This document shows, piece by piece, positions 3,301-30,178 of a DNA stretch of 64,000 nucleotides. Every line of letters begins with the position of its first letter. The first letter of the stretch is position 1. The stretch comes from Laspinema palackyanum D2c (GTDB taxonomy: Bacteria; Cyanobacteriota; Cyanobacteriia; Cyanobacteriales; Laspinemataceae). Where the stretch lies: contig NZ_JAMXFD010000026.1 in NCBI RefSeq assembly GCF_025370875.1, positions 1 through 64,000 on the forward strand, written 5' to 3'. The notes below the pieces were generated by a model. That model saw only the letters and a list, made by a program, of their open reading frames with translations, was not told the origin of the DNA and made no database searches. Made by a program: the position numbers and the translations under genes.

Positions 3301-6300
3301 CTGTTACACTCTGTAACGGCGTTATTTCACCCAGATTTCCCCTGAGATTAATCGCACCTGTTCCGGCATTTAACGTTAAATTGCGTAGCGGCATATTGCC
3401 GGAATCACTGTCAATATTTCCAACAACGGTAATATCACCCCCTTCGCTATTCGTGTCCAGAGTAATATCAGTTCCAAGAATTACATTTCCAGTTAAAGCA
3501 ATATCATTATGCGCTGTGATAATATCAGCATTTAGCTTAATGGTAGTCGCATTCAAGGCAAGAGAGGCATTACCTGAACCCGTAATCGTCCCATTCACCA
3601 CCAGTATCCCCGAACCTGCTTTTATCGCCACCGGGTCCAAAAATGTCAGAGGATTAACAATAGAAATCGTTCCCGATGAGTCAGGACGTCCCAAGGTAAT
3701 GGCGGTAAATCCATCTTGGATATACTCCAACTCCGTGCGGGTTAGATGTAAGCTCTCTGGGTCCAAATTATTATCCCCCAGAGTCATATTCTGGGTCGTT
3801 GTTGCCGGTTGCAACGTCAGCGTATTGGTTCCAGTAACGGGTCCATTAAATTCAATTTGTCCGGCAGTTAAGGTGAGGGGATGATTAAGCGCATCCAGAG
3901 GGGAAGTAAAAACTAAACCCCCGGTTCCAGCATTTAAACTCGCCGCTCCGGTTAGGGTGACAGGTGCAGTAAACTCGATATTATGATGGTTGGTTGTAAT
4001 TTCGCTGTTGAGGATGACGCTTCCCATGCCAGTTTGCTGGAAGACCCCCTCTAAATTCAAAGGTGCAGCAATTTCTAAACCTTCTGTATTGTCCAGGGTT
4101 ACGCCACCGCCTCCCGTTGTCGTAATCGGAGCATTAAACCTCATCTGATTGGTGGTCAGATTAATCCCATTTGCGCCAGTTGTCACAATTTCGCCGTTAA
4201 AGATGGTGCTTCCTGTCCCCGCCAATTGAGTCAAACTTGTGGCGGTTATAGATTCAGTTGTGACATGGTTGGCATTCAAAATGGTGAGGTTACCTAACTC
4301 GGATTGACTGCCTACAGCCCCCTCTATAGCGATATTGCCGCTTCCCGAATTTAAAGTAAAATTAGAGTTTCCATCAATAGTCTGCGTAAAGGTAATATTC
4401 CCCGAATTAGTGGTAAAGGTAGCAGGATTGACAAGATTAACCCCACCATCTAGGGTCAGATTCCGGGTATTTGCAATCAGGTCTCCATTAACATAAATCC
4501 CTTGACCCGTTTTCAGAGTCAGGTCATAATTAGCATCACTAAGGTCAATGGTTTCATCTAAAGAACCGAGATAAATATTGCCGATTGTTTCCGAACCCAG
4601 GGTGAGAATGCCACGGGGAACCTCTAACATCAGCAATTCTTCGGTAGTGATATCGTACTCGGCGGTAGTATTATTGAGGGAAATATCACGACCGGGGGCG
4701 ATCGGTTCTAAAGTGAGCATACCAGTGGTAAAAATGCGAGTTTCACCGATGAGGCGGATATCGTTACTGCGGAGAATGACATCGCCACTGCCGGTTCCCA
4801 TCTGGTTGATAAAGCTATTCTCTAACCGAATCCCCTCCACACCATTTGCACCCATCCCTTCCAGGGTAATAGTGCCGGTTCCCGTTGATTCAATGTTAGT
4901 GACGGGAGAAACATTATCAGGTTCGGTGTTATTGAGAGTGGTTAACAGAAAAATACCTTGATTATTTTCTCCCGTACCCTTGCCGGTACCCCGGAGAGTA
5001 ATATTTCCATTTCCGGACTGGATGGTTGTGTTAGTCTCTATGCCGTCTGTGTCAATGCCAACAAATATCCCGGTATTCCCATTTGTGCCAGTGCCGCCAG
5101 TGCCTGTAATCGCGATCGCCCCCCCTGTGGATTCCACCCTGCTGCCATTGAGAAGAACAACGCCTGGGTTAAATTCTTCTGCGCCGCCGCCAGTGCCGGT
5201 GAGGGTGATATTTCCGTTTCCTAATACGGTTGTGTTGGTATTAACAAATATCCCTTCGTTATCATTAGTGCCAGTACCGCCGATGCCGGTGATGGCGACT
5301 GCACCCCCTGTGGATTGCACCATGCTACCCCCTAGAAGACGAACACCTCGGTTATTTTGCCCGGTGCCGTCGCCACCAATGCCAGTGAGAATAATATTTC
5401 CGTTCCCGAATATGGTGGTTGTGTTATTAACCCCTATCCCAATGCTCTCATCGGTGCCACTGCCGCCTCTGCCTTCGATGGCGATCGCCCCACCTGTAGA
5501 TACAATACTGTTACTAAGGCCAACCCCGGCGTTCTGTCCTGCCGTGCCGTCGCCACCGTTTCCAGTGAGGGTGATATCTCCCTTCCCGAATAAGGTTGTG
5601 CTATCAACAAATATCCCGAGGTTTCCAAGCGTGCCAGTGCCGCCTCTGCCTTCGATGGCGACTGCACCACCTGTGGATTCCACCCTGCTGCCACCTTGAA
5701 GCGTAACACCTTCGTTGTATCGTCCCGTGCCTTCGCCACCAGTGCCGGTGAGGGTGATATCTCCGTTCCCTAATACGGTTGTGCCGGTATCAACAATTAT
5801 CCCCGTGTTGAGATTCGTGCCAGTGCCGCCAGTGCCGGTGATGGCGATCGCCCCTCCTGTGGATTGCACGCTGCTGCCATTTTGAAGAGTAACGCCTTGG
5901 TTGCTTTCTTCCATGCCGTTGCCACCAGTACCAGTGAGGGTGATATCTCCAGTTCCTGACTTAATAATAGTTCTGATAGTCTCTGGAGTGTTACTAACAA
6001 ATATCCCCCTGTTCTCAGTGAGACCATTACCACCGATGCCTTCTATCGTAATCCCTCCACTGGTTGATTCTATGTTGCTCCCTTCCAAATCGATGCCACT
6101 ATTGGAATTTCCAGTTCCATTCCCTCTACCAAAAAGCCTTATATTGCCTTCTTCAGATCGAACAGTAGATTGTTGAAGAAATATTCCATCATTTTCGTCC
6201 AGTCCATTACTATTAACTATGCCAATTAGCTCGATTATTCCCGTTCCCCCTGTTGAAACCGTACTATTTCTAATAATTACCCCATCGGTATATTCCCCTG

Positions 6301-8401: not shown

Positions 8402-9083
8402 AATTTTGACTCAATTTAGCTCAATAAACAACAAAGTATTCTCTAAAATTGTGATTGAATTCAATTAATTTTTTAGAGGGTTTTGCTCCCAATAGGGTCA
8501 CCCCTGCCAACGCTTCTCCAACGCGAAATCCCATGAGGGTCTGCCAAATCTCCCCTCGGTTTGGGACTTGAGTACACTGCTGTGTCTTGCCCTATCACCT
8601 ATCTCCTGTTGAGGTACAACAAGACAGGGCCTCACAAGGTTTTATCTCTTGGGGTCCTGGGAGAGGGGGGAAAATAGGGTGGATTTAAAGTAGTTAAGAT
8701 GCAATTATACCATACCACGCCCTCCCTGTACCTAGCCAAAAGTACAATTTTTTAAAGGATCCTCGATAAATGTTTAGGAAGGGTCAGGGAAAATCACACC
8801 GGAAGTCCTAGAGGTGGGGGCGATCGCTCTTGCCAAATCCTTGGGGGAGTGGTTGCGATTTTCAGAGGATAGAGTTCCGTTGAAAGTTGGGTGATGTTTT
8901 CTCGCTGCAACTGTAGGGAATTCAAGCAGAATTTGTGCTTGTCAATCTCAAAGAAAATGCTATAATATAGCTGTGAAATTCAAATTTAGGGTTGCTGTCG
9001 GCTGGATACCAGACGGGGGCGTGTTAAACTCTGGGACAACGCTCAGGGTGCAGTAATTGTCCGCAAAGGAGAGTTAAAGCACT
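8402..9083. other. 682-bp divergent intergenic region
   Basis: The giant FHA-CHAT gene reads leftwards and the LprI-like gene rightwards from this region. No convincing ORF is present. The right end holds a good promoter (8939-8966); I could not identify a clear promoter for the leftward gene. Confidence 0.6.
8939..8966 (+). promoter_or_regulatory. sigma70-type promoter of the LprI-like gene
   Basis: TTGTCA at 8939-8944 and a perfect TATAAT at 8961-8966 are 16 bases apart. The expected start near 8973 leaves a leader of about 110 nt before the ATG at 9084. Confidence 0.6.
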
Positions 9084-9758
9084 ATGAAAGAGATCAATCG
9101 AGATCAAGTTTGGCGCGGGTTGGGAGGATTGGGACTAGGGGGAATGACTGCGATCGCCCTCATGTGGAATCAACCGAATGTAGTTGCTCAACCCCGACTC
9201 AATTGCAACAATCCGCGCAGTCAATCTGAAATGAATGCTTGTGCGGGAGAACGGTGGCAGGCGAGCGATCGCGAACTTAATGAAATTTATCAAGCGGTGA
9301 TCCCGGAACTGTCCAATACCAGACGGCAACAATTAGTCACGGCACAACGCGCTTGGATTACCTTTCGGGATTCTGAATGCACCTTTTACAGCAGTTTCGC
9401 CGAAGGGGGAACGATGCAACCGATGCTGCGATCGGGCTGTTTAGCGGATTTAACGGACATTAGAACCTTTGAGCTTTATCAGTATAGTTGGGGCGAAATT
9501 CCACCAGCGGAAGGACAAAGTTATCAAGTGGCTGATAACCGGCTCAATGAGGTCTATCAGCAGGTGATGCGACAACTTTCAGGGAAACGCAAAGAACAGT
9601 TAAGGACCGCACAATTGGATTGGATTAAATATCGCGATGCTCTCTGTGAGTTTGAGCGTAGCGGCGGCGGGAATGCCGGATTTAATATGTGTCAAATTCG
9701 GCTGACTGAGGTCCGGACGGCTCAGTTGGAAGAGCATTTAGGATACAGTGGATTGTAA
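9084..9758 (+). CDS. secreted LprI-like protein with two DUF1311 domains
   Basis: 224 residues. AAGGAG at 9067-9072 precedes the ATG. A hydrophobic stretch (about 15-36, ending VVAQ) is a signal peptide. Two related DUF1311 (lysozyme-inhibitor LprI N-terminal) modules follow, at about 40-120 and 140-218. The first has CNNPRSQSEMNACAGE, the second lacks the matching start, and both carry the family pattern LNEIYQ-V...QL-TAQ-WI-FRD..C. The family includes periplasmic lysozyme inhibitors, but many cyanobacterial members are uncharacterised. It is probably a periplasmic envelope protein, with an inhibitor role only inferred. It is monocistronic, with its own promoter and terminator. Confidence 0.85.
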   Translation: MKEINRDQVWRGLGGLGLGGMTAIALMWNQPNVVAQPRLNCNNPRSQSEMNACAGERWQASDRELNEIYQAVIPELSNTRRQQLVTAQRAWITFRDSECTFYSSFAEGGTMQPMLRSGCLADLTDIRTFELYQYSWGEIPPAEGQSYQVADNRLNEVYQQVMRQLSGKRKEQLRTAQLDWIKYRDALCEFERSGGGNAGFNMCQIRLTEVRTAQLEEHLGYSGL

Positions 9759-9797
9759 CCCTTAAGGGGTTTTAGTAACAGGTTTTTAAGGATTTTA

Positions 9798-9832
9798 GAC
9801 TGGGGAAATTAGGCTATTCCCCAGTCTTTTTT
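9798..9832 (+). terminator. rho-independent terminator of the LprI-like gene
   Basis: GACTGGGGAA (9798-9807) pairs perfectly with TTCCCCAGTC (9817-9826) and is followed by TTTTTT. Confidence 0.85.
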
Positions 9833-9944
9833 ATATACCTTATGAAGTGAGAGAGTTTGTTTGATAAAGGTATTAGGCGGCAGAGCCGCAACAGGGCCTT
9901 GTCACTGCGGAGCCATGAGACGAGAGGAGGTTTTTCCGGTCCCC

Positions 9945-10010
9945 TCTCCTCTTTCCGGTCCCCTCTCCTGATTCTTGGGGAGGGTTAGGGAGGGGTTCCC
10001 AGGCGGTTGC
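9945..10010. repeat. dispersed CCGGTCCCCTCTCC / GGGGAGGGTTAGGGAGGGG repeat
   Basis: Two direct copies of CCGGTCCCCTCTCCT are followed by an imperfect complement, GGGGAGGGTTAGGGAGGGG, giving a foldable element. Relatives occur at 20050-20102 and, translated in frame, at 22300-22405. This is a common non-coding repeat type in Oscillatoriales genomes. Confidence 0.6.
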
Positions 10011-10028
10011 CTCCCCCCCCAATCCTCC

Positions 10029-13000
10029 CTATACCCTCCGTAAATCCAAGGTGAGAGGATATTCCCGACTGGGTAAAACCGATCGCACCTGAATCTCCCC
10101 TGGAGTATGTCCCAAGGGAACAAACCGCGTAATCAGTCGGCTATGAGCTTCCCGGGAGTTGAGGGGGAAGGTACTCCAGTCTACACCCCCTGGATGTTCG
10201 GCGTAGTAAGTGCAACCTCCGAGCGATCGCCTCTGCCAGGTATCCACGATATCAAAGACTAAAGGAACATGAGGGTCGATCGCCGGATGTAGTCCTGCTG
10301 CTACTGTGCGGGCACGATAGCGGACTCCTGCTACACATTCTCCTGCTGTATCCGTCCCTTGTAAGGGCACGGGATAGCCGTTACAGGTGACACTATGCCG
10401 TCCCGGGGTGGCATTCCTCAACAGGACCTGGATGCGCTCCATTGAGGAGTCTACATACCTTGCTGTCCCTGTGGTTGTGGCTTCTTCTCCTAACACATAC
10501 CAGGGTTCGATCGCCCGTCGCAGTTCCAGTTCAACTCCCTCTCGCACGATCGCCCCATATCGAGGAAACCGGAACTCTAAAAATGGCTCAAACCACTCCC
10601 ACTCAAAGGGATAACCGCTATCGGTTAACTCCCGCAGGATATCCCGAAAATCCAGGGCGATGTAATACGGCAATAAGAAGCGATCGTGTAAAATCGTCCC
10701 CCAGCGCACCAAATTTCCGCTGTAGGGTTGTTGCCAAAAGCGGGCAACCAGGGCGCGAATCAGTAATCCCAGGACCAGTGCCATGTGCGGATGAGGGGGC
10801 ATTTCAAAGCCCCGTAATTCCAGCAATCCCAGTTGATTTTTCCAATTTTCCACCGGATACAGTTTATCGATGCAAAACTCACTGCGATGAGTGTTGCCGG
10901 TGACATCGATCAGGAGGTTCCGTAACAGGCGATCGATGACGTTGGGGGGAACCTCGGTTTTGGGGACTAAATGTGCCAGGGCGATTTCTAGTTCATATAA
11001 ATTTTCAAACCGCCCTTCATCGACTCGCGGGGATTGGCTGGTGGCCCCGATAAATAAGCCGGAAAATAGGTAAGATAAGCTGGGATGGTGCTGCCAGTAA
11101 GTGATTAAACTCCGCAGTAAGTCGGGACGACGGAGTACAGGACTCTCCTCTAGGCTTGGGCCGCCTAGGGTGATGTGAGAACCGCCTCCAGTGCCGATGC
11201 GGATTCCATCTTTGGTGTATTTTTCCGCATCTAGGCGGCAGAGTCGGGCTTCTTCGTAGAGACAGGTTGTGGTTTCCACCAGTTCTTGCCAATTCGCGGC
11301 AGGATGCAGATTGACTTCGATTACGCCGGGATCTGGGGTGATTTGAAAGCCTTGCAGACGCCGATCGCGCGGTGGGGTAAATCCTTCAATGTGGATGGCA
11401 TAGCCGGTTTCGCTGGCAGCATCTTCGATAGAGGCGATCGCATCGAGGTAGTTTTCTGCGGCACTAATCGGCGGCATGAAACAGTACAAGTTTCCCTCTC
11501 GCACTTCCACACATACCGCGACTTTAACGCTGTTAACGGTATCCACCCGGTGAGGTTTCTCACCTACTCGACTGCGGACTCGATTCAAGATATCCCCCAA
11601 CGGGTGAAAACTGTCCTCGGGATTGACTTCTGCTTCGGTTTGGAGTTCTTCCTCCGCTGCCCAATTCATCGCACTCAGGGGTAAGCGAAACCCTGCGGGA
11701 GAATCTCCGGCAATTAAGGCGAGGCGATCGCCTGGGGGATGCCAAGGACCTGTTACCCAGCCCTCTGTCCCATCCCTTTTAGTCCAAATTAAGGGCAGAA
11801 CATAAGCACAGAGGTCTTTGTCCGGATTTTTGTCATAAGCGGCGATGATACAGTTTGTATCCACCCCTAGCCGTTGGGCAACTGCGGTGATGAAAATTTG
11901 AGCATCTTTGGGGGTATAATTTGTATCCCCGGTTTCCGGAAGGGGACTGTGCCAAATCGGAACCCCATCCTTGCGCCAATAACAGCCTAATGCCCAGCGG
12001 GGTAAGGGTTCCCCGGGATACCACTTGCCTTGACCCTCATGCAAGAGTCCTCCGGGGGCGAAGCGTGTGCGTAATTGGCCGAGCAACCCCCAGGCTAACT
12101 GGCGTTTTTCTGTCCCTAGCGCCCCAGTGTGCCATTGAGCCGACTCGCGATCGTCCTGGGAAACAAAGGTCGGTTCTCCCCCCATTGTTAATCGCACATC
12201 TGCCGCTTGTAACTGCGCCTCGACTGTCTCACCTAACTGGGTGATGACTTGCCATTGTTCTTTTGTATAAAATTGAGTCACCCTCGGTTGTTCTTCCATC
12301 CGGGTTACAGTGACGGAATAGGTTAAATCGCTCTCACAAGGACCGATTGAGCCGGTGACAGGTTCGGCATTTTTGGGGTCAGCCGCCGCCGCGAGGGGAA
12401 TATGTCCCTCAGCGGTGAGGATTCCCGAGGTGGGGTCGAGTCCAATCCATCCGGCCCCTGGGAGATATACTTCGGCCCAAGCGTGTAAATCTGCTTTATC
12501 TGCCTCCGGTCCCGGAGGACCTTCTAAGGGGGTTTCATCGGGTTTGAGCTGGATTAAATAGCCGGAGACAAATCGCGCCGCTAACCCACAATGCCGCAAA
12601 ATTTGGACTAATAACCAAGCGGTATCGCGACAGGAACCGAGGCGTTTGGAGAGAGTTTCTTCACAGGTTTGAATTCCCGGTTCAAAGCGGACGGTATAGG
12701 CGATATCCTGTTGGAGTTTTTGGCTGAGGTTGCCAATAAATGTGGTGATGAAGGGGTTGGATTTTTCCAGTTGATTCACCCATTCAGTTAACCCGGGTCC
12801 GGATTCTTGAATTTGCAAACAGGGTTGCAGTTCAGCGGCGAGTTGTTCGTCGTAGGTAAAGGGGTAGGAACTGGCGTACTGTTCCACTAAGAAATCAAAG
12901 GGATTGATGGGATGAAGTTCGGCGATTAAATCTACCTGAATCTGGAGGTGACTACTCATTTCAGGGAAGTTCACTCGGGCCATAAAATCACCGAAAACTC

Positions 13001-19411: not shown

Positions 19412-19477
19412 GTAGGGTGGGCACTGCCCACCTGCCTTGTCAGCCCTACTACGCGATGTGGGCAGTGCCCACCCTAC
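19412..19477. repeat. 20-bp inverted repeat (GTAGGGTGGGCACTGCCCAC family)
   Basis: GTAGGGTGGGCACTGCCCAC (19412-19431) and its exact complement (19458-19477) are 26 bp apart. Single-arm relatives occur at 27344, 28302 and 37409, so this is a dispersed palindromic family. Confidence 0.8.
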
Positions 19478-20263: not shown

Positions 20264-23158
20264 CTATTTAGCACCTTGGGTTTTGCCGGTTCCTAACTTT
20301 TTCCCGGAGTTTTGCTGGCGGGTCATTTTACTGTACATTTCAAACAGTTTTTCTAGCCGTTCGGTGTCATTTTTGAAGCGGCGACCGATGTAGATGCGTT
20401 CGATAATTTCATCATTGCGATCGTGCGCTTCCCGGACTCGGGGGAATTCCCTATCCAGCCGTTCTGGAGCGTACATATCGGCAATTGTAGCCGGGAAATA
20501 ATGCTCTCGGGCTAATAGGATTTCTTCCGCGCAACGGGTCATATCAGTTTTGTTTTGTTCCGTTAAAGTGGGGACAGGGAAGGTATTCCAGCCGAGAGTG
20601 TTGGAGTAGCGAAAATCGGTTTTTAGCTTGCCGCAAACGGTGGCGATCCAGACTAAGTGCAGCCGTGAGGCGATTAGCGCCATGTTCCACAGGGGTGCAT
20701 CGTAGAGAGCGAATAGAAGATCACTGGCGATCGCTCTACCCTCCAATAAATCAACCGGGATATAATGTCTTTTCTCCGATGATACTTTTGCAACTACCAG
20801 AGCGTGATTTCTGGCGGTGCCAGCGATTTGTACAAACCGATAAGGGCGCGAAGCAAAATCGCGTGTAGATCCTGCTTTGCTGGCTAAACGAAACTGCCTA
20901 ACCTTTTCTTGTACTTTTTTTAAATAGGGATGTTCACTGGCAATGGCTGAATCAGAATTCTCAATCCAAATGCACCACCTGCGCTTACCCTGTATCATTT
21001 CTTCTGCTCCCAAATAGGGACGAATAAAGCGCTCAAGAGCAGAATAAGTTTTCAATATATTCGCTCGTTCCTCACCATCCAAAATCAAATTTCCGCCGTC
21101 TCTTGGCATATTGCCAAACAACATAGGCGATACTTCTGACAGTGGATTCCGGACTTGTTCAACCCGACAATTTGAACCGGCGACGAGATACGCATTGATG
21201 TATCCAACACTGCGCTCAAAAAGTGTTTCTTCGTCAGTGATGGAAAATAACCGTCGCATAGTGGCAGGCTCGCTTGCAATTCCAATAATAGAAACCGTCA
21301 CCCCAGCATTATGACTCGCCAGATTCGCCCAGTTGAACGAGGTATGTGCGAAAGCAATCTCATGTCCGGTTTCAAAAATTAGCGGCCAAAGAATCGGCAC
21401 TTGTTGCCCTTGACAAATCGAATTTGTCGATACAAATGCCGCCGCAGAATGGGTCTGAGTTCCATAATCTGCCGCCTTCATAAACCAACCCGACACATAA
21501 TCCAGCGACTTCCAATGTTTTGTACGACTATCAAAAATTTGTTGTAAATCATCCTTCTGTTCCTGGGATTGCCACTTGGAACCCAAATAAGGCGGATTCC
21601 CACAAATATAAGTTTCTCCCCCCTCATTCTCAAACTCAATCTCTGCCTGCTCCCGCGTTTCCCCCCACCAATCCAAATCGTCACGCTGCACCTTCACCCC
21701 CGTTCCCGTGGGTGGACATAAACTCAACCAATCCAACCGCAACGCATTCCCACAGGTTATCCAATTATCATTTTGCAGGGGCAGAAACTCCCACAAAGCC
21801 AACTGCGGCACCCGATACAACACATCACACTGAAACTCGGAAATAATCAACGCCAACCGCGCCACCTCTGCCGCAAAATGGCGAATTTCTATCCCCCGAA
21901 AATTGGTTAAAGGAATCTCAGAACGGTGTTCCACATCTTCCCGACGACGGTTAATTTCTGCCTCAATTTTCCGCATTTCCTTATACGCAATCACCAGAAA
22001 ATTCCCCGACCCACAAGCCGGGTCAAACACCCGAATTCGCGCTATCCGTTGCCGTAAATTCAACAATTTGCGGCGATTCTCCCCCGCCTCTTCCAACTGA
22101 CTCCGTAAATCATCCAAAAACAACGGATTCAGCACTTTGAGAATATTCGGCACACTGGTATAGTGCATCCCCAAAGCGCCGCGTTCCTCCTCATCCGCCA
22201 CCGCTTGAATCATCGACCCGAAAATATCGGGATTAATCTTTTTCCAGTCCAGATTTCCCACATGAAGCAAATAAGAACGGGCAATTTTGTTAAAACGCGG
22301 CACAAGACCCTCACCCCCGACCCCTCTCCCCGGGTGGGAGAGGGGAGATATACCTTCTTGTCCCCCTTCTCCCGTCTTGGGAGAAGGGGTTAGGGGATGA
22401 GGGCCAAACAGCCCTCCATTCACATAAGGAAACCGATCCGCCCAACTGCAAATCCCCGCTGCCTTTCGGTCCTTTAAAGGAGTATTCATCGCCCGAAACA
22501 CTTCCGAGAGCACCTCATGGGTATTAGAAGCATCGGGGGCACTCATCTGGGTAATAGTCGCCGTAAACAACCCCTCACTATGGAAAATATGGGTATCCTC
22601 AGCAAAGAAACAGAAAATCAGCCGCGCCATGAAATGGTTAAACCTCTCCCGGTGTTCCGCTTTATCCCAGTCGGGATTCTGCTTGAGTAACTCCATATAT
22701 AGCCGATTCAGACGACCCGTTGCCTTGATATCAACCGCATTTTCCCGGATTTGCCGCACTGTGGTAATCCCTGCCAAGGGCAAGAAAAAGCCGAAATGGT
22801 CGGAAAAATTGGGGTAGTTGCAAGCAACTGTCTCACCATCGACCAAATTTTCCGCCTCAAAACTTTTGCCATCCGTTGCCAGGATAAACTTAACCTTGTA
22901 GCGAGTTGTAGCGGAACTCTCACGCAAAGCGGTGAGGGTGGCGGTAACTTCCCCTTCTGGACAAACCTGCAAATGGATAGTATTGCGCTGAAGCACCCCA
23001 CCGGGTAAATCCGATGGATTGAAGTTACTGCTTTTCAGCCGCTTGATAGTCGTCGCCTTGTTCCCAAAGGCTTCCAGGAAAGCAAAGGGGAACGCTTCCG
23101 GGTCAAAAGGGGCTTCGGCTAACTGGGAAACGGCTTCTTCGATTTCAACTGCGTTCAT
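20264..23158 (-). CDS. MmeI-like class I SAM-dependent DNA adenine methyltransferase (copy 2)
   Basis: 964 residues. An MmeI-type helical spacer (about 160-250, MARLIFCFFAEDTHIF) precedes an N6-adenine methylase core with motif I DPACGSG (379-385) and motif IV NPPY (521-524). A target-recognition region lies at about 635-820 and an MmeI-type C-terminal helical domain (ATIADMYAPERLDREFP) closes the protein. The N-terminal nuclease motif of MmeI (D...ExK) is not apparent, so it probably only modifies DNA. It is nearly identical to the gene at 23452-26253 outside the recognition region. Residues about 252-286 are an extra in-frame segment encoded by a dispersed repeat. It lies 293 bp downstream of copy 1, in the same direction. 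Role: DNA self-marking in a restriction-type defence system (inference from context). Confidence 0.88.
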   Translation of the reverse strand: MNAVEIEEAVSQLAEAPFDPEAFPFAFLEAFGNKATTIKRLKSSNFNPSDLPGGVLQRNTIHLQVCPEGEVTATLTALRESSATTRYKVKFILATDGKSFEAENLVDGETVACNYPNFSDHFGFFLPLAGITTVRQIRENAVDIKATGRLNRLYMELLKQNPDWDKAEHRERFNHFMARLIFCFFAEDTHIFHSEGLFTATITQMSAPDASNTHEVLSEVFRAMNTPLKDRKAAGICSWADRFPYVNGGLFGPHPLTPSPKTGEGGQEGISPLSHPGRGVGGEGLVPRFNKIARSYLLHVGNLDWKKINPDIFGSMIQAVADEEERGALGMHYTSVPNILKVLNPLFLDDLRSQLEEAGENRRKLLNLRQRIARIRVFDPACGSGNFLVIAYKEMRKIEAEINRRREDVEHRSEIPLTNFRGIEIRHFAAEVARLALIISEFQCDVLYRVPQLALWEFLPLQNDNWITCGNALRLDWLSLCPPTGTGVKVQRDDLDWWGETREQAEIEFENEGGETYICGNPPYLGSKWQSQEQKDDLQQIFDSRTKHWKSLDYVSGWFMKAADYGTQTHSAAAFVSTNSICQGQQVPILWPLIFETGHEIAFAHTSFNWANLASHNAGVTVSIIGIASEPATMRRLFSITDEETLFERSVGYINAYLVAGSNCRVEQVRNPLSEVSPMLFGNMPRDGGNLILDGEERANILKTYSALERFIRPYLGAEEMIQGKRRWCIWIENSDSAIASEHPYLKKVQEKVRQFRLASKAGSTRDFASRPYRFVQIAGTARNHALVVAKVSSEKRHYIPVDLLEGRAIASDLLFALYDAPLWNMALIASRLHLVWIATVCGKLKTDFRYSNTLGWNTFPVPTLTEQNKTDMTRCAEEILLAREHYFPATIADMYAPERLDREFPRVREAHDRNDEIIERIYIGRRFKNDTERLEKLFEMYSKMTRQQNSGKKLGTGKTQGAK
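22300..22405. repeat. dispersed palindromic repeat inserted in frame in methyltransferase copy 2
   Basis: CCCCTCTCCCCGGGTGGGAG and CCCTTCTCCCGTCTTGGGAG are the centres of two hairpins. Together they add a net 31 codons (rich in Pro, Gly and Ser, e.g. PHPLTPSPKTGEGG) relative to the paralogous gene, where the sequence runs GGLFSGSLEVPRF. The insertion keeps the frame and falls at a surface-type turn before the methylase core. Confidence 0.85.
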
Positions 23159-23451: not shown

Positions 23452-26253
23452 TTATTTAGCCTTTTTCCCTTGAGCAGACTTTTTCCCAGGCTTTTGCTGA
23501 GTGGTCATTTTACTGTACATTTCAAACAGTTTTTCTAGACGTTCCGTGTCGTTTTTGAAGCGGCGACCGATGTAGATGCGTTCGAGGATTTCGTCATTGC
23601 GATCGTGTGCCTCCCGGACTAGGGGGAATTCGCTATCCATGCGATCGCGATCGTACATATCTGCAATAGTAGCGGGGAAATAATGCTCTCGCGCTAACAA
23701 AATCTCCTCCGCGCAACGGGTGAGGTCGATTTTGTTTTGTTCGGTGAGAGTGGGGACAGGAAAGGTATTCCAGCCGAGAGTATTGGAGTAGCGAAAATCG
23801 GTTTTGAGCTTGCCACAGACGGTGGCAATCCAGACGAGGTGAAGACGGGAGGCAATCAGCGCCATGTTCCAGAGGGGGGCATCAAATAATGCAAAAGCGA
23901 GATTGCTAACAATAGTTCCGGAAGGACAATATCCTACAGGTAAATATTCGCGGCTTTCGGATGAAACACTTGGTACAATCAGCACCGTTTCAGTTCCAAT
24001 TTGACGAACTTCACCAAACCTGAATGGAATTGTGGCTAATTGCTTTGTAGTTGCTCGATTTGATTTAAAACGCTGTTGTTTAACAGATTTAAAACGTTCA
24101 TTTAACCACTCATTTTGAGTTGCTTTTGATTGATCTGAATCTAGCACCCAAATACACCGCCGCTCAAGACCCCGAATAAACTCTTGAGAACCCAAAAAGG
24201 GCCGAATATATGACAAATCTACACCAAACTGATTCGTGGCTTGTTTAGCTTCCGATGCGCTGAGAATAAGGAACCCTCCATCATTTGCCATATTGCCAAA
24301 ATACATTTCTCCTATGCTAGACAAAGGCTCATTTGCTTTCTTGACAACGATATTAGCTGCCGCTGCTAAATAAGCATTAATGTTGATGGCTTCCTTGATA
24401 GTCACACATCCGTAATCATCGGTAGAAAATAGTTTTCGTATTTTTACAGGAGTAGCTGTAATTCCAACAATTACTACGGTCACGCCAGCGTTGTGACTGG
24501 CCAGATTTGCCCATTTGAAGCTCGTGTGGGCAAATATAATCTCATGCTTTGTATCAAAAATAAGCGGCCAGAGAGTCTCCACCTGTCGTCCCTGGCAAAT
24601 TGAATTGGTCGATACGAATGCTGCTGCGGAGTTTGTGTGAGTTCCGTAGTCCGCTGCCTTTATGAACCAACCTGAAACATAGTCGAGAGAACCCCAATTT
24701 TTAGTCCGTGCCTCGAAGATATGCTGCAAGTCTTCTTTTTGTTCCGTGGTTTGCCACTGGCTCCCTTTATAAGGCGGATTCCCACAAATATAAGTCTCCC
24801 CGCCCTCATTCTCAAACTCAATTTCCGCCTCATCTCGCATTTCCCCCCACAAATCCAAATCCTCACGCTGCACCGTGACCCCCTTACCCGTAGGCGGACA
24901 AAGACTCAACCAATCCAACCGCAAGGCATTCCCACAAGTAATCCAATTGTCAGCTTTTAGCGGCAAAAACTCCAACAAAGCCAACTGCGGCCCCCGATAC
25001 AACACATCACATTGAAACTCCGCAATAATCAACGCCAACCGCGCAATCTCCGTGGCAAAATGACGAATCTCAATCCCCCGAAAATTGGTTAAAGGAATCT
25101 CAGAAGGGCGAGTTAGTTCACCCAGCAACTCATTAATTTTTGCCTCAATTTTCCGCATCTCCTTATAGGCAATCACCAAAAAATTCCCCGATCCACAAGC
25201 CGGATCAAACACCCGAATTCTGGCCATCCGTTCCCGCAAATTCTGCAACTTCCGAGGATGAGTTCCCGCTGCTTCTAATTGCTCCCGTAAATCATCCAAA
25301 AACAACGGATTCAGCACTTTGAGGATATTCGGCACACTGGTATAGTGCATCCCCAAAGCGCCGCGTTCCTCCTCATCCGCCACCGCCTGAATCATCGACC
25401 CAAAAATATCAGGATTAATCCGCTTCCAGTCCAAATTACCCACATGAAGCAGATACGATCGCGCAATCTTGCTAAAACGCGGCACCTCCAGACTCCCAGA
25501 AAACAGCCCCCCATTCACATAAGGAAACCGATCCGCCCAATTGCGAATCCCTGCCTCCTCTCGCTTCTTCAGGGGAGTGTTCATCGCCCGAAACACCTCC
25601 GAAATCACCTCATGGGTATTAGAAGCATCCGGCGCACTCATCTGGGTAATAGTCGCCGTAAACAACCCCTCACTATGGAAAATATTCGTATCCTCAGCAA
25701 AAAAACAGAAAATCAGCCGCGCCATGAAATGGTTAAACATCTCACGGTGTTCCGCCCGATCCCAGTCCGGATTCTGCTTGAGTAACTCCATATAAAGCCG
25801 ATTCAGACGACCCGTTGCCTTGATATCAAAGGCATTTTCCCGGATTTGCCGCACCGTGGTAATCCCCGCCAAAGGCAAGAAAAACCCAAAATGGTCCGCA
25901 AACTCTGGGTAATCACAGGCAACGGTTTCCCCATCCGCCAAATTTTCCGCCTCAAAACTTTTGCCATCGGTTGCCAGGATAAACTTAACCTTGTAGCGAG
26001 TCGTAGCGGGACTCTCACGCAATGCTGTCAAGGTGGCAGTCACTTCCCCTTCTGGACAAACCTGCAAATGGATATTATTGCGCTGAAGCACCCCCCCGGG
26101 TAAATCCGATGGATTGAAATTACCGCTTTTCAGCCGCTTGATTGTCGTCGCCTTGTTCCCAAACGCTTCCAGGAAAGCAAACGGAAACCCTTCCGGGTCA
26201 AAAGGGGCTTCGGCTAACTGGGAAACGGCTTCTTCGATTTCAACTGCATTCAT
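23452..26253 (-). CDS. MmeI-like class I SAM-dependent DNA adenine methyltransferase (copy 1)
   Basis: 933 residues with the same layout as copy 2: N-terminal domain, helical spacer (MARLIFCFFAEDTNIF), motif I DPACGSG (about 350), NPPY (about 490, ICGNPPYKGS), a target-recognition region at about 605-790, and an MmeI-type C-terminal domain. The first 240 residues and the last 150 are nearly the same as in copy 2, whereas the recognition region differs at most positions. The pair should therefore methylate two different sequences. No nuclease motif is visible. It lies downstream of the Rpn gene (118-bp gap) on the same strand. Confidence 0.88.
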   Translation of the reverse strand: MNAVEIEEAVSQLAEAPFDPEGFPFAFLEAFGNKATTIKRLKSGNFNPSDLPGGVLQRNNIHLQVCPEGEVTATLTALRESPATTRYKVKFILATDGKSFEAENLADGETVACDYPEFADHFGFFLPLAGITTVRQIRENAFDIKATGRLNRLYMELLKQNPDWDRAEHREMFNHFMARLIFCFFAEDTNIFHSEGLFTATITQMSAPDASNTHEVISEVFRAMNTPLKKREEAGIRNWADRFPYVNGGLFSGSLEVPRFSKIARSYLLHVGNLDWKRINPDIFGSMIQAVADEEERGALGMHYTSVPNILKVLNPLFLDDLREQLEAAGTHPRKLQNLRERMARIRVFDPACGSGNFLVIAYKEMRKIEAKINELLGELTRPSEIPLTNFRGIEIRHFATEIARLALIIAEFQCDVLYRGPQLALLEFLPLKADNWITCGNALRLDWLSLCPPTGKGVTVQREDLDLWGEMRDEAEIEFENEGGETYICGNPPYKGSQWQTTEQKEDLQHIFEARTKNWGSLDYVSGWFIKAADYGTHTNSAAAFVSTNSICQGRQVETLWPLIFDTKHEIIFAHTSFKWANLASHNAGVTVVIVGITATPVKIRKLFSTDDYGCVTIKEAININAYLAAAANIVVKKANEPLSSIGEMYFGNMANDGGFLILSASEAKQATNQFGVDLSYIRPFLGSQEFIRGLERRCIWVLDSDQSKATQNEWLNERFKSVKQQRFKSNRATTKQLATIPFRFGEVRQIGTETVLIVPSVSSESREYLPVGYCPSGTIVSNLAFALFDAPLWNMALIASRLHLVWIATVCGKLKTDFRYSNTLGWNTFPVPTLTEQNKIDLTRCAEEILLAREHYFPATIADMYDRDRMDSEFPLVREAHDRNDEILERIYIGRRFKNDTERLEKLFEMYSKMTTQQKPGKKSAQGKKAK

Positions 26254-26382
26254 AATGACAAGTAAAAAAGACTGTGATTATATCTCAAATGGGTGAATAA
26301 ACAAGAATGCTTTGATCCGGTGTCGATCGCCCCAAACCGCCTTAAAAACGCCAATCGGCTTTTGGGAATTTTGCACCCCTGT

Positions 26383-27273
26383 CTAATCATTCATTTCTTG
26401 GCGTAAGGCGGCAATTTCCTCGAAACTCAATCCAGTAGCTTGGGCGATCGCCTCATCATTCAGTTGACCCAATAAGTTGCGCGCCACGTCACGTTTTCCT
26501 TGTTCGAGTCCTTGTTCGAGTCCTTGTTCGAGTCCTTGCTGGAGTCCTTGTTCCAGTCCTTGTTCGAGTCCCAAAGCGATCGCACCCTGTTGGTCATAAA
26601 TAAACATTTCCCGCCGTTCCACCTCTTCTAATTCTTCTAGGGTTAATCCCGCTTGATTGGCAATTTCAAAAGCTTGATTGAGTTCGGCGATATCATCCAT
26701 ATTGTCCGGAATCGAAGTGAGCGATCGGGCAAACTTCATAAAATAAATCCATTTGTCCGTCAGGGTTTCCAGCTCATCCAGTTCTTTGGTAAACTTCGGT
26801 AATTCAACAAAAACTAACTCCATCTCATTCTCAGGGTAATGCCAGCCTTCAGACTTCTCGCGATAGACAAAACGGGAAATCAATTGATTCTGTCCCGGAA
26901 ACATCTCAAAATCCGTTAAAGTCAAAGCAATCACCGGCTTCAGGAATCGATACCCTTGTCCCCGTTGCAGTTGAAACGCATAGGTTTTAGCCGCATTAAA
27001 CAACACCCGCTTCCCAAAAGATTGCACATTCAAAACCTGCATCTCAACAATCACAAATGTGCCATCATTAAGCTGGGCTTTAACATCCAAATAGGTATCT
27101 TTTAACCCTTCCAGTTGAGGAGGCAAATTAGGATTAATGATTTCCAAATCTTGAATAGTCGAATTGCCATCATAGACCAAAGCATTGAGAAAACTGATTA
27201 AGATGTTCTTGCTTTGTGCCGAACCAAAGATTTTTTTAAAAGCGTAGTCAGTTTTGGGGTTAATAAATCTCAT
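26383..27273 (-). CDS. Rpn family recombination-promoting nuclease / PD-(D/E)XK transposase-like protein
   Basis: 296 residues from the ATG at 27273 (MRFINPKTDYAFKKIFG, the typical Rpn start); the longer reading at 27288 uses TTG. The PD-(D/E)XK signature is visible as TYLDVKAQLNDGTFVIVEMQ. The C-terminal part holds a run of LEQG units followed by KRDVARNLL and a small helical end (ATGLSFEEIAALR). Rpn proteins are DNA endonucleases that stimulate recombination in E. coli; cyanobacterial genomes carry many copies. It lies between the methyltransferases and the xisHI cassette. Confidence 0.85.
   Translation of the reverse strand: MRFINPKTDYAFKKIFGSAQSKNILISFLNALVYDGNSTIQDLEIINPNLPPQLEGLKDTYLDVKAQLNDGTFVIVEMQVLNVQSFGKRVLFNAAKTYAFQLQRGQGYRFLKPVIALTLTDFEMFPGQNQLISRFVYREKSEGWHYPENEMELVFVELPKFTKELDELETLTDKWIYFMKFARSLTSIPDNMDDIAELNQAFEIANQAGLTLEELEEVERREMFIYDQQGAIALGLEQGLEQGLQQGLEQGLEQGLEQGKRDVARNLLGQLNDEAIAQATGLSFEEIAALRQEMND
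26497..26568. repeat. six 12-bp tandem repeats (LEQG units of Rpn)
   Basis: TCCTTGTTCGAG repeats six times in 26497-26568, units 4 and 5 carrying substitutions. On the minus strand it encodes LEQG/LQQG. Such units in Rpn proteins vary in number by slippage. Confidence 0.85.
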
Positions 27274-27343
27274 AGACAGCCTACCCAAATTTTTTTAACT
27301 AATTTTAGCATGAGTTGGGTCTTCAGGAGTGCCACCTCGATCT

Positions 27344-27393
27344 AGTAGGGTGGGCATTGCCCACATAGCGGTTCGGTGGCTTCACCATCATAC
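27344..27393. repeat. 50-bp direct repeat, left copy
   Basis: Identical over 50 bp to 28302-28351. It begins AGTAGGGTGGGCATTGCCCAC and ends GGCTTCACCATCATAC. Together the two copies bracket xisH-xisI. Confidence 0.95.
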
Positions 27394-27503
27394 TATTCTA
27401 TTCGGTTGTTAAAGGAGAAGGTGGGTAAGTGCCTACGGGGCGATCGCGATGATAGCTTTGTATGATAAGTTTGGATAGAATCGGGTTTAGGCGATCGTCT
27501 ATT

Positions 27504-27920
27504 ATGGCTAAGGATCGTTTTCATCAAGTGGTTAAGAAGGCTCTCGAATCAGATGGGTGGACTGTCACCCACGATCCCCTTGAGATTAAAGTCGGTGGGG
27601 TAGATATGGAGATTGACTTAGGGGCAGAACGACTACTAGCAGCAGAGCGCGGACATGATAAAATTGCGGTGGAAGTCAAAAGTTTTTTGGCGAGGGCATC
27701 GGCAATTTCAGAGTTTCATACCGCCTTGGGGCAGTTTATTAACTATCGGGCTGCTTTACGCCGTGAAGACCCCGATCGCATTCTCTATCTGGCTATCCCA
27801 AATCTAGTCTATCACACATTCTTTCAGAGGGAATTTCCAGCATCAATGCTGCAAGAAAATTCCGTAAAACTCATGGTTTACGATATTGAATTGGAGCGAA
27901 TTTTGCTATGGAAGGAGTGA
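27504..27920 (+). CDS. xisH: XisH-like protein (fdxN-element excision controlling factor homologue)
   Basis: 138 residues from the ATG at 27504 (MAKDRFHQVV), the usual XisH start; the longer frame from 27462 has no family support. The PD-(D/E)XK-type core is visible: GGVDMEIDLGAERLLAAERG then KIAVEVKSFL, followed by LGQFINYRAAL. XisH and XisI are required with XisF for excision of the fdxN element in Anabaena, but most cyanobacteria carry many copies with no such element, and their general role is unknown. It overlaps xisI by 13 bp. The pair is the only plus-strand unit inside the minus-strand island. Confidence 0.9.
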   Translation: MAKDRFHQVVKKALESDGWTVTHDPLEIKVGGVDMEIDLGAERLLAAERGHDKIAVEVKSFLARASAISEFHTALGQFINYRAALRREDPDRILYLAIPNLVYHTFFQREFPASMLQENSVKLMVYDIELERILLWKE

Positions 27921-28255
27921 CCGATAAATTAAAAACTTACCAACAAATTGTGCAACAATTGTTGATGAAGTATGCCAAAAGTAAGCCAGCTTATGGTGAG
28001 ATTGAGGTTGAAACTATTTTTGATACCCAACGAAATCATTATCAAATAGTCCATTTCGGTTGGCACCATCAGCGCTGGATTCATCAGAGTGTCATCCATT
28101 TAGATATCCGCAATGAGAAATTTTGGATTTTTTGCAATTCAACCGAGCATGATGTTGCGGAAGATTTAGTCAATTTGGGTGTCCCCAAACAAGATATTGT
28201 GCTGGGATTTTATCCGCCTTTTATGCGAAAAATGAGCGATTATGCGGTAGACTAA
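27908..28255 (+). CDS. xisI: XisI-like protein
   Basis: 115 residues with the family pattern: KLKTYQQIVQQLL, DTQRNHYQIVHFGW, RWIHQSVIHLDIRNEKFWI, NSTEHDVAEDLV, and VLGFYPPFMRKMSDYAVD. It overlaps xisH by 13 bp, so the two are translationally coupled. XisI is thought to act as the partner of the nuclease-fold XisH, in an arrangement that resembles a toxin-antitoxin or regulatory pair (inference). Confidence 0.92.
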   Translation: MEGVTDKLKTYQQIVQQLLMKYAKSKPAYGEIEVETIFDTQRNHYQIVHFGWHHQRWIHQSVIHLDIRNEKFWIFCNSTEHDVAEDLVNLGVPKQDIVLGFYPPFMRKMSDYAVD

Positions 28256-28301
28256 AATAGAGCAACCAGGGAGGCATAATAATATTCCCAAAAACCGAAG
28301 G

Positions 28302-28351
28302 AGTAGGGTGGGCATTGCCCACATAGCGGTTCGGTGGCTTCACCATCATAC
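28302..28351. repeat. 50-bp direct repeat, right copy
   Basis: Identical to 27344-27393 and in the same orientation; the starts are 958 bp apart. It lies 46 bp after the xisI stop. Confidence 0.95.
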
Positions 28352-28415
28352 AATTGCGGGCAAAAACTTTCGCGATCGCATTGTCGGTTCTATTGCTGCC
28401 TTCCTCTTAAACCGC

Positions 28416-28871
28416 TTAAGGATGGGAATCATATCCCTGAAGGTGAGTATCTAAAGACCAAATAAACACCCGACGATTGGGAAATAAGCGCCTCGATTTT
28501 TCCCATTCCTGGACAATGGATAGATCTGCCATTCCCTTCCCTTCGGTTGCTGAATCTGGAAAACCCGTCAACCAGAGTTTCACTTCATCCAATGTGGGAA
28601 CCTGCATCACCGTCCAAGGGGTTTCCCCGGCGATCGCCTGTTCAACTTGCTCGACAAAAAACTGGGCACATTGTCGGCGCAAATTACCCTTACTGATATG
28701 AGCGATATGATTTCCAGTTTCATAAACCACAGCCATAGGTAACAGCAAATTAGTTCCTTTTTCCAAAAATTGCCTGAGTTCTTCTATGATTTTCTCTCGC
28801 TCATCATTCAATTTAGGAATATTCAGGACATTACAGAAAACCGACGTATCGACAATCGCAACATCCGCCAT
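28416..28871 (-). CDS. PIN-domain ribonuclease-like protein, partner of the AAA ATPase
   Basis: 151 residues from the ATG at 28871, which overlaps the TGA of the ATPase gene as TGATG; a GTG at 28874 is an alternative. Acidic residues typical of PIN nucleases are in place: D8 (AIVDTS), E51 (VVYETGN), D116 (GMADLSIVQEW) and D141 (IWSLDTHL). No classic VapB antitoxin lies beside it. Its tight coupling to the ATPase suggests that the ATPase controls it, as in ATPase-nuclease defence modules (inference). Confidence 0.8.
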   Translation of the reverse strand: MADVAIVDTSVFCNVLNIPKLNDEREKIIEELRQFLEKGTNLLLPMAVVYETGNHIAHISKGNLRRQCAQFFVEQVEQAIAGETPWTVMQVPTLDEVKLWLTGFPDSATEGKGMADLSIVQEWEKSRRLFPNRRVFIWSLDTHLQGYDSHP

Positions 28872-30178
28872 CACTGAACCTCTACCCTCGAATTCAGGGA
28901 AGTCAACCAGTCTAAAGCCTGCTGTTTTTTTATCTCAGCGCCTGGATGCTGCTTTACAAACCGTTCTAACAGCCCGCGAGTCATTAAATGACCCACTGAA
29001 CCTTGAGCAATGAGTTCCGGGTAATCCGGAATATCTTGCAACCGAATTAACTGACTTGACCCATCATCCGGACTGCGATAACACAATTCAGTTTCAGGAA
29101 TTGCTTCATCAGGAAGAGCATCTAATAAAGCTGGATTATGACTACTAATAAGAATACGGAGGTTACGTTGTCGCGCAAGTTCAGCCATCCGAGACATTAA
29201 AGCACTCGCCCGACTGGGGTGTACACCATTATCGATTTCTTCAATGACCACCAAACTTTCTTCCGGTGCAGAAAGTAATACCGCTGCAATGGATAAAACT
29301 CGCAGAGTTCCATCAGAAAGTCGTGCTGCATCATAAGGAGTCGCCACGCCTCCAAAGGTTTCAGTGAGTTCTAACATCACCTCATCCCGAGGTGTTTCCA
29401 GGAAACTAATATCCTCAATATTCTGTTCGGGGAGACTCCGAACAAAATCCAACACCACCTGCTTAGAAGTTGGAGATTGGCATAAATTATAAATAACTCC
29501 AGATAAATTTTGCCCTTTCTCTCGCAAAACCTGATCCGTTTTGTGCCCATATTCTCTCATCAAACTCGGTTCCGGCTCTAAAAACACAATTCCACTCAAC
29601 CAACGGACATAAGTTTCGCAAACCTCGGGGATAATTTCTCGACTTTTGATATTTTCCGGTCGAAATCGAATCGCACTTAAAAGTTGGGTAAAAACCGCTA
29701 GATGACTACTACAAACCAGACTCGGTTTTTTACCGCCTCTCGCAAAATTATTATAAGTCACAAAAATATCACTACCTGCCCCTTGCGGTTCACTGGTAAT
29801 TTCATACAAGGGAACCTTAGAATCTGAACTAATAATCCGTTCTTGAGTGACCTGCAAATGGGTGTCTGAACTAAGTCCAAGTTGAATCTCAAACCGTTCC
29901 CAATCGGGATGATTGGTCAAGCAAGCCAGTTGAAATGTATGTTTCCCTCGGTATCCCAAATGTTCGACATTGCCGCGAAAGAAAGTCTCTCCTTTTTGTT
30001 GAGGATTTCTGAGCAATCCCAGCCGTTCCCCCGTAGCAAGTCGAGATAAAAGCCGTAAGGCTTCAATGACATTACTTTTTCCCGAAGCATTGGCCCCAAT
30101 CAAGACCGTGAGCCGCCCTAAGTGCAATGTCGCCGATTTATAACTTTTAAAATCTTTTAACTCTATTTCTGTAATCAT
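28871..30178 (-). CDS. AAA family ATPase (ABC/SMC-like, OLD-type AAA_15/AAA_21)
   Basis: 435 residues. Walker A GANASGKS (28-35), an ABC-type signature LSDGT (287-291), Walker B LVVIEEIDNGVHP (309-321) and the H-loop SSHNP (345-349) are all intact. The opening MITEIELKDFKSYKSATLHLG is typical of RecF/SMC-like single-domain ATPases in anti-phage systems. No TOPRIM domain follows. The PIN nuclease gene downstream overlaps it at TGATG. It probably senses DNA or phage structures and licenses the nuclease (inference). It lies 168 bp downstream of the GIY-YIG gene. Confidence 0.85.
   Translation of the reverse strand: MITEIELKDFKSYKSATLHLGRLTVLIGANASGKSNVIEALRLLSRLATGERLGLLRNPQQKGETFFRGNVEHLGYRGKHTFQLACLTNHPDWERFEIQLGLSSDTHLQVTQERIISSDSKVPLYEITSEPQGAGSDIFVTYNNFARGGKKPSLVCSSHLAVFTQLLSAIRFRPENIKSREIIPEVCETYVRWLSGIVFLEPEPSLMREYGHKTDQVLREKGQNLSGVIYNLCQSPTSKQVVLDFVRSLPEQNIEDISFLETPRDEVMLELTETFGGVATPYDAARLSDGTLRVLSIAAVLLSAPEESLVVIEEIDNGVHPSRASALMSRMAELARQRNLRILISSHNPALLDALPDEAIPETELCYRSPDDGSSQLIRLQDIPDYPELIAQGSVGHLMTRGLLERFVKQHPGAEIKKQQALDWLTSLNSRVEVQ

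What the first reader, a model, noticed from the sequence alone, without database searches (positions are those of the whole stretch)
27344..28351. xisH-xisI pair bracketed by identical 50-bp direct repeats
The only plus-strand unit in the island is flanked by two exact 50-bp repeats, starts 958 bp apart. This is what an inserted or excisable cassette would look like. XisH and XisI are named for excision of the fdxN element, yet their many cyanobacterial copies have no known cargo; here the direct repeats could be exchange sites or leave the cassette open to loss by recombination. The repeat is one arm of the GTAGGGTGGGC palindrome family.
Basis: partly seen in the sequence, partly recalled or inferred. 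Interest (0 to 1): 0.7.

Follow-up and report, generated by a model that had tools for sequence, protein, structure and literature searches.

The report
Dispersed palindromes beside an xisHI pair
Two identical short DNA repeats beside a pair of cyanobacterial genes turn out to be stray copies of a scattered palindromic repeat that most likely came in after the genes, so they do not mark a movable cassette; the gene pair itself shows gene-loss patterns like those of a toxin and its antidote.

Summary
The repeats are real: 27344-27393 and 28302-28351 are identical over 50 nt, 958 bp apart, around an intact xisH-xisI pair. They are not cassette ends. They are decayed copies of a dispersed inverted-pair palindrome built like a REPIN. 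It occurs elsewhere in this genome and at 11 places in one congener, none with XisH or XisI in the flanks held; three of those lie in a 121-bp MITE-like unit. Four congeners carry xisHI at this locus; every flank readable there lacks the repeat, and three keep a leader that the repeat block has, by parsimony, replaced here. The one relative with both neighbours and no xisHI also lacks the repeat. Loss by recombination between the repeats is possible but was not seen. A second result concerns xisHI itself: near-full XisH was always followed by XisI (43 of 43 in six genomes, 10 of 10 in four more), while 55 of 98 XisI lack near-full XisH and 23 of those keep XisH remnants. Two congeners lost XisH here and kept XisI. 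That resembles decay of a nuclease toxin beside its antidote; no function was tested.

The parts
27344..27397 (+). left copy of the palindromic element (27344-27393 identical to the right copy)
27398..27437 (+). decayed head of a second copy (CTATTCGGTTGTTAAAGGAG..), directly behind the left copy
   Evidence: read by eye against the tandem copies of G001 (L046)
27439..27503 (+). conserved part of the xisH leader with a putative -10 region, kept in relatives; the ~100 bp before it are replaced here
   Evidence: alignment; the promoter reading is by eye
27504..27920 (+). xisH, predicted PD-(D/E)XK nuclease, D38/E57/K59 present
27908..28255 (+). xisI, start overlaps the end of xisH
28302..28355 (+). 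right copy of the palindromic element, between convergent xisI and the PIN gene
26383..27288 (-). left neighbour: Rpn/PD-(D/E)XK_2 family gene
28416..28874 (-). right neighbour: PIN-like gene, PADLOC candidate PDC-M07B
28871..30178 (-). AAA ATPase gene, PADLOC candidate PDC-M07A

Best explanation
The repeats are two decayed copies of a dispersed, non-coding inverted-pair palindrome of REPIN/MITE type. One copy settled near xisHI after xisHI was already in place, and a local copying event (short-patch gene conversion or re-insertion) made the second. On the left, the repeat block replaced about 100 bp of the old leader but spared the part next to xisH. They do not move xisHI. Their only likely effect is passive: hairpins in intergenic DNA, and a target for rare deletion of xisHI by recombination between direct repeats. 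Shown: family membership, dispersal, absence at the same locus in congeners, mobility signs in a congener. Inferred: that xisHI came first (parsimony), the order of the two copies, the copying mechanism and the mobilising enzyme.
For: Dispersed family: the left arm has 33 matches at up to 3 mismatches in the own genome against 0 for the reversed-pattern control; of the 30 of these held as loci, only the two at issue have XisH or XisI in the flanks held. Two full siblings fold into strong hairpins (z -11.8 and -7.4; a short-arm G001 copy -3.1). The short-right-arm subfamily (23-nt pattern, up to 2 mismatches) has 2 copies in G000, both at xisHI, 11 in congener G001, and none in the other 57 of 59 genomes; 11 of 11 G001 loci have no XisH or XisI in up to 1.5 kb of flank. 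Three G001 copies lie in an identical 121-bp unit with inverted ends and 3-bp flanking duplications TTA/ATA/TTA (sequences, read by eye). Both xisHI copies share changes absent from the other copies printed (GCGG, CATCATAC), so one derives from the other or they were homogenised. Same locus in congeners: no repeat in G002, G005, G007 (both sides) and G001 (right side only); best match to the 20-nt arm has 7-8 mismatches there, and 9-10 in G013, G003, G011, which lack xisHI at this place.
Against: The subfamily's only two copies in this genome sit exactly on the two sides of xisHI, which the explanation treats as local copying plus chance. No relative examined has both xisI and an intact PIN gene without the repeat, so the state before the right copy came in is not directly seen. 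The left flank of G001, the nearest relative by this locus, is off its contig. The locus was not found in congeners G004 and G006. No target duplication was identified at the window copies.
Confidence: 0.82

Rival explanations
1. xisHI plus one repeat is a mobile or excisable cassette that integrated by recombination at a single repeat, leaving two identical copies.
For: Perfect 50-nt direct repeats on both sides; no other copy within 3 mismatches in the genome; a site with both neighbours and no xisHI exists in G013.
Against: xisHI or its remnant sits at the same site in four congeners without the repeats on any readable flank, with a homologous leader in three; the G013 site has no repeat. 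The other own xisHI pairs (C45, C21) and the XisH-less xisI (C34) are not bracketed by the element within the 1.5 kb held.
Confidence: 0.06
2. The repeats mark the joint of a homologous or illegitimate exchange that rebuilt this locus: an intact PIN gene was brought next to xisI, the repeat served as or was left at the joint, and the left copy followed by gene conversion.
For: G001 and G005 share the same joint of xisI to a truncated PIN gene, although in the AAA region G001 is nearest to G000 (94.6%) and G005 to G003 (93.8%). Among the genus genomes where the locus was seen (G000-G003, G005, G007), only G000 has xisHI with an intact PIN gene, and the repeat lies in that joint.
Against: Deletion of the PIN gene could also have spread between lineages; no donor with the joint was found.
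Confidence: 0.2
3. The repeats are functional regulatory or terminator hairpins for xisHI, kept identical by selection.
For: The right copy lies between convergent genes, the left upstream of xisH.
Against: The right arm is decayed in both copies and folding is weak: DNA fold z -2.2 and -1.6 for the left copy (two strands), 0.0 and -0.9 for the right. Four congeners lack them on every flank that can be read.
Confidence: 0.07

Closest known systems
REPINs / REP doublets (Nunvar 2010, PMC2817692; Bertels and Rainey 2011, PMC3116915; passages seen)
   Same: Two inverted REP-like arms starting GTAG with a palindromic foot, dispersed. The arm GTAGGGTGGGCATTGCCCAC(C) resembles the published REP of Haemophilus influenzae, GTAGGGTGGGCTTcAGCCCACC. 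The own genome encodes two proteins over the NCBIfam cut-off for REP-associated tyrosine transposases, and a RAYT-like gene of congener G003 has an inverted GTAGGGTGGGC pair just upstream.
   Different: 33 left-arm matches here (both arms of full pairs counted); the Nunvar abstract calls over 100 copies usual, though its Haemophilus REPs have about 20-40. Neither RAYT locus of this genome has the element in the flanks held; mobilisation by a RAYT not shown.
MITEs
   Same: In G001 three identical 121-bp units with inverted ends (GGGTATTCCAAAAAATAAAT...ATTTTATTTTTTGGAGTTCCC) and 3-bp target duplications (by eye).
   Different: The window copies have only the inner palindrome, without recognisable outer ends or a visible target duplication.
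XisH/XisI of the Anabaena fdxN element
   Same: Both Pfam families at full length; solved XisH and XisI structures match.
   Different: No fdxN gene and no element recombinase among the six proteins of the pair and its neighbours scanned with Pfam, and no element ends. Papers seen in passages call the roles unclear, undisclosed in non-heterocystous strains, or likely an endonuclease and a directionality factor.

Membership tests
REPIN / REP doublet | Two inverted short palindromic arms with GTAG-type head | tested here: met
   Full siblings L048, L050; hairpin z -7.4 and -11.8; the window copies have a decayed right arm
REPIN / REP doublet | Dispersed, extragenic, many copies | tested here: inconclusive
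   33 left-arm matches in 7.03 Mb, more than the control but few; extragenic position of each not checked
REPIN / REP doublet | Linked RAYT gene in the genome | tested here: inconclusive
   Two RAYT-family proteins in G000, neither with the element in its held flanks; one linked case in G003, 73.3 bits against a cut-off of 80
MITE | Terminal inverted repeats and target-site duplication | tested here: inconclusive
   Seen for three copies in G001 (by eye), not visible at the window copies
Excisable cassette bounded by direct-repeat exchange sites | Empty site carries one copy of the repeat | tested here: not met
   G013 (both neighbours present, no xisHI) has no copy, 9 mismatches at best over 20 nt; likewise G003 and G011 (9 and 10), where only the right neighbour matches
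Excisable cassette bounded by direct-repeat exchange sites | Cargo found with the sites | tested here: not met
   Same locus without the sites in G002, G005, G007 and, on its one readable side, G001
fdxN-type excision element | Site-specific recombinase and a split target gene | tested here: inconclusive
   No recombinase among the six proteins scanned with Pfam (the Rpn neighbour carries a nuclease/transposase name); the genome was not searched for XisF
Toxin-antitoxin-like pair (XisH/XisI) | Overlapping two-gene unit with a nuclease-fold partner | tested here: met
   Overlap 27908-27920; D38, E57, K59 invariant in 116 of 116 aligned XisH, including the window's; motif meaning recalled
Toxin-antitoxin-like pair (XisH/XisI) | Presumed toxin not found without presumed antitoxin, the reverse allowed | tested here: met
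   43 of 43 and 10 of 10 near-full XisH have XisI; 55 of 98 XisI lack near-full XisH. XisH fragments without XisI do occur: 6 of 11 fragment loci
Toxin-antitoxin-like pair (XisH/XisI) | XisH harms the cell and XisI neutralises it | not testable with these tools
   needs expression assays

The most novel reading that the evidence does not exclude
XisH-XisI pairs, of which hundreds of XisH and XisI matches were found in the 59 genomes searched here, are mainly a PD-(D/E)XK nuclease toxin with its protein inhibitor. Cells repeatedly disarm them by deleting XisH and keep XisI, possibly as protection against incoming XisHI; the fdxN-excision role would be a later recruitment of one such pair.
Probability: 0.55. 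Interest if true: 0.65.

Novelty: new member of a known kind. Interest (0 to 1): 0.38.

Why it matters
It removes a tempting false lead: identical direct repeats around a gene pair need not mean a mobile cassette when a dispersed palindrome family is at work. Studying the pair gave a stronger, testable claim, that XisHI behaves in evolution like a nuclease and its antidote, which would explain why so many copies exist in cyanobacteria beyond the fdxN element.

Tried and rejected
Excisable cassette: rejected because congeners have the pair or its remnant at this locus without the repeats, and the G013 site without xisHI has no repeat.

Known RNA family: the four matches listed in 26000-30000 are all far below their gathering scores.

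Link of the element to a RAYT or IS200 gene: of 30 Y1-transposase loci held from 8 of 9 genomes (two of them overlapping), one (L267, G003) has GTAGGGTGGGC in its flanks. Suggestive only.

General habit of xisHI to be flanked by direct repeats: with equal 900-nt flanks, 5 of 70 loci have an exact repeat of 20 nt or more across the pair against 2 of 142 off-centre controls (Fisher p 0.04, uncorrected); at 30 nt or more 3 of 70 against 1 of 142 (p 0.11). The repeats printed are not this element. A first version with a control from other DNA gave 8 of 87 against 9 of 289 at 20 nt and 6 of 87 against 2 of 289 at 30 nt. A weak excess that I do not explain and do not take as evidence.

Phage carriage: no XisH match in 50,697 phage records; 39 of 72,556 plasmid records match. 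A 30-nt inner repeat sequence has no exact match in viral contigs.

Papers: in searches no listed title or abstract, and no passage opened, proposes XisHI as toxin-antitoxin; most listed papers were not opened, and one search (XisHI) was swamped by an unrelated word. The library lacks most subscription journals and the Hwang et al. structure paper, so this is not a claim of priority. Passages only were seen of PMC4853749, PMC4874684, PMC2674450, PMC11297309, PMC5647855, PMC3116915 and PMC2817692; nothing was read whole.

Rows dropped: in the six-genome census, XisI matches under 66 bits (13 of the 111 rows) were left out, 17 of 110 loci without a plus-strand XisH hit and 6 with flanks under 400 nt were left out; the xisI of G002 and G008 was not retrieved.

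Full report
OBSERVATION. One search finds 27344-27397 and 28302-28355, 53 of 54 identical, spacing 958; the identical core is 50 nt. In the own genome (G000, 7.03 Mb, 81 contigs) no third place lies within 3 mismatches of the 49-nt core. Between them are xisH and xisI, full-length members of PF08814 and PF08869. The large ORFs around them, 20.2-34.4 kb, are on the minus strand: two MmeI-type genes, an Rpn-family gene, a PIN gene with an AAA ATPase (PADLOC candidates PDC-M07B and A), and more.

WHAT THE REPEAT IS. Searching the left arm alone gives 33 matches at up to 3 mismatches in the own genome against 0 for the reversed-pattern control; of the 30 held as loci, only the two at issue have XisH or XisI in their flanks. 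The best siblings are full inverted pairs, GTAGGGTGGGCA-TGCCCACATAGCTGTTCGGTGGGCATTGCCCACCCTAC, and the two folded are strong hairpins (z -11.8 and -7.4). The xisHI copies have lost most of the right arm (GTGGCTTCACCATCATAC), and their own fold is weak. The same shortened arm, without the last changes, occurs 11 times in congener G001 and in no other of 59 genomes besides G000; none of the 11 is on C380, the G001 contig that carries this xisHI, and none has XisH or XisI in up to 1.5 kb of flank. Three of the G001 copies lie in identical 121-bp units on three contigs, with inverted ends and 3-bp flanking duplications TTA, ATA and TTA (sequences, read by eye). Two pairs of G001 copies lie 110 and 61 bp apart, so close pairs are not unusual for this family. 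The family resembles published REPs: Table 1 of Nunvar et al. (PMC2817692, passage seen) lists GTAGGGTGGGCTTcAGCCCACC for H. influenzae. Two proteins of this genome pass NCBI's cut-off for REP-associated tyrosine transposases, but neither has the element in the flanks held. A RAYT-like gene in G003, under the cut-off (73.3 against 80), has an inverted GTAGGGTGGGC pair immediately upstream. Which enzyme moves the element is not shown.

ORDER OF EVENTS AT THE LOCUS. The xisHI locus was found at the same place in G001, G002, G005 and G007; it was not found in congeners G004 and G006. In G002, G005 and G007 the stretch between the left neighbour and xisH is a shared leader of about 100 bp; in G000 it is replaced by the repeat and a decayed second copy, while the part next to xisH is kept. 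Three against one, the leader is taken as the older state. No repeat is present at these loci on the sides that can be read (best 7-8 mismatches over a 20-nt arm); the left side of G001 is off its contig. In G013 both neighbours are present 255 bp apart without xisHI and without the repeat; G003 and G011, which match the right neighbour only, also lack it (9-10 mismatches). So xisHI is most likely older here than the repeats, and its absence in relatives is not explained by recombination between them. The two copies share changes not seen in the other copies printed, so one was copied from the other or they were homogenised.

OTHER XISHI COPIES. The own genome has three XisH and four XisI. The pairs at C45 and C21 and the XisH-less XisI at C34 are not bracketed by the element; one palindrome arm lies about 0.7 kb downstream at C45. 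Of 80 XisH loci from named genomes 3 contain GTAGGGTGGGC at all.

WHAT XISHI IS. XisH matches solved structures 2inb and 2okf; XisI matches 3d7q, 2nlv, 2nwv and 2nvm. D38, E57 and K59, which fit the PD-(D/E)XK pattern (motif recalled), are invariant in 116 of 116 aligned XisH. In G005 most of xisH is deleted in frame, leaving 35 codons from MAKDRF; in G007 a different deletion leaves a short stub and a tail; both keep a 115-codon xisI. XisI dN/dS is 0.14 between G005 and G007, and 0.07-0.14 over the six pairs of four genomes; pairwise values do not isolate the time after XisH was lost. In G008 an xisI is preceded by what reads as the tail of xisH (by eye). Over 59 genomes XisH has 292 matches and XisI 400, fragments included; XisI exceeds XisH in 34 genomes, the reverse in 4, equal in 21. 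In six genomes chosen partly because of their XisI excess (G003, G007, G010, G015, G053, G055), 43 of 43 near-full XisH (150 bits or more; three with an internal stop) have XisI directly downstream, and so do 19 of 19 XisH fragments. Of 98 XisI at 66 bits or more, 43 have near-full XisH, 13 an XisH fragment, 10 only an XisH tail (weak matches, E under 0.05; 0 on reversed control sequence), 30 no trace, and 2 are at contig edges. In the four genomes with more XisH than XisI matches, 10 of 10 near-full XisH have XisI; the other 11 XisH matches are fragments, and 6 of those loci show no XisI. In 87 of 87 further XisH loci tested XisI follows (23 of 110 dropped; some overlap with the genomes above). 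Near-full XisH without XisI was thus not seen, while XisI without XisH is common. If the pair worked only as a complex both should decay alike. The simplest reading is a nuclease toxin with an inhibitor. It is not proven: XisI may have a second role, 30 XisI show no trace of XisH, and XisH fragments without XisI fit either view. [quoted passage not shown] No title, abstract or opened passage in searches calls the pair toxin-antitoxin; most of the listed papers were not opened.

VERDICT. Observation confirmed. The cassette reading is contradicted by comparison with relatives; the palindrome-family remark is right; loss through the repeats remains possible and unseen. The repeats are an ordinary dispersed element. 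The evolutionary asymmetry of XisHI is the part worth following.

Noticed in passing
L106 (G000:C45), 242-398 and 1284-1440: A segment of about 157 bp is repeated directly, 1042 bp apart, with a small ORF and a PIN-like ORF (493-1198, VapBC-like by eye) between the copies, right beside another xisHI pair; it looks like an insertion with a long duplication.
   Followed up: no
window 28416-30178: PIN plus AAA ATPase pair matching PADLOC candidate PDC-M07; G001 and G005 share the same truncation of the PIN gene next to xisI, and G002 lacks both genes at this place.
   Followed up: partly
window 20264-23158 and 23452-26253: Two tandem paralogous MmeI-like type IIG restriction-methylation genes (the second scanned, the first by similarity).
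   Followed up: no
L042, L043, L044 (G001): A 121-bp MITE-like unit with inverted ends and 3-bp flanking duplications carries the palindrome as its core in a congener.
   Followed up: partly
L267 (G003) 1181-1248: Inverted GTAGGGTGGGC pair directly upstream of a RAYT-like gene.
   Followed up: partly
window 26500-26571: 12-bp tandem repeat inside the Rpn-family gene, coding for repeated EQGL.
   Followed up: no
window 19412-19477: A complete inverted pair of the same palindrome family, not near xisHI.
   Followed up: no
L035 (G007) about 8640-10246 and L038 (G003) about 4063-5643: A gene with a Fic-like HPFxDGNGR motif (by eye, motif recalled) lies beside xisI in G007 and between the MmeI and PIN genes in G003, part of the patchwork of this island.
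   Followed up: no
L089, L233, L235: Exact direct repeats of 45-66 nt across other xisHI pairs, unrelated to this element.
   Followed up: partly
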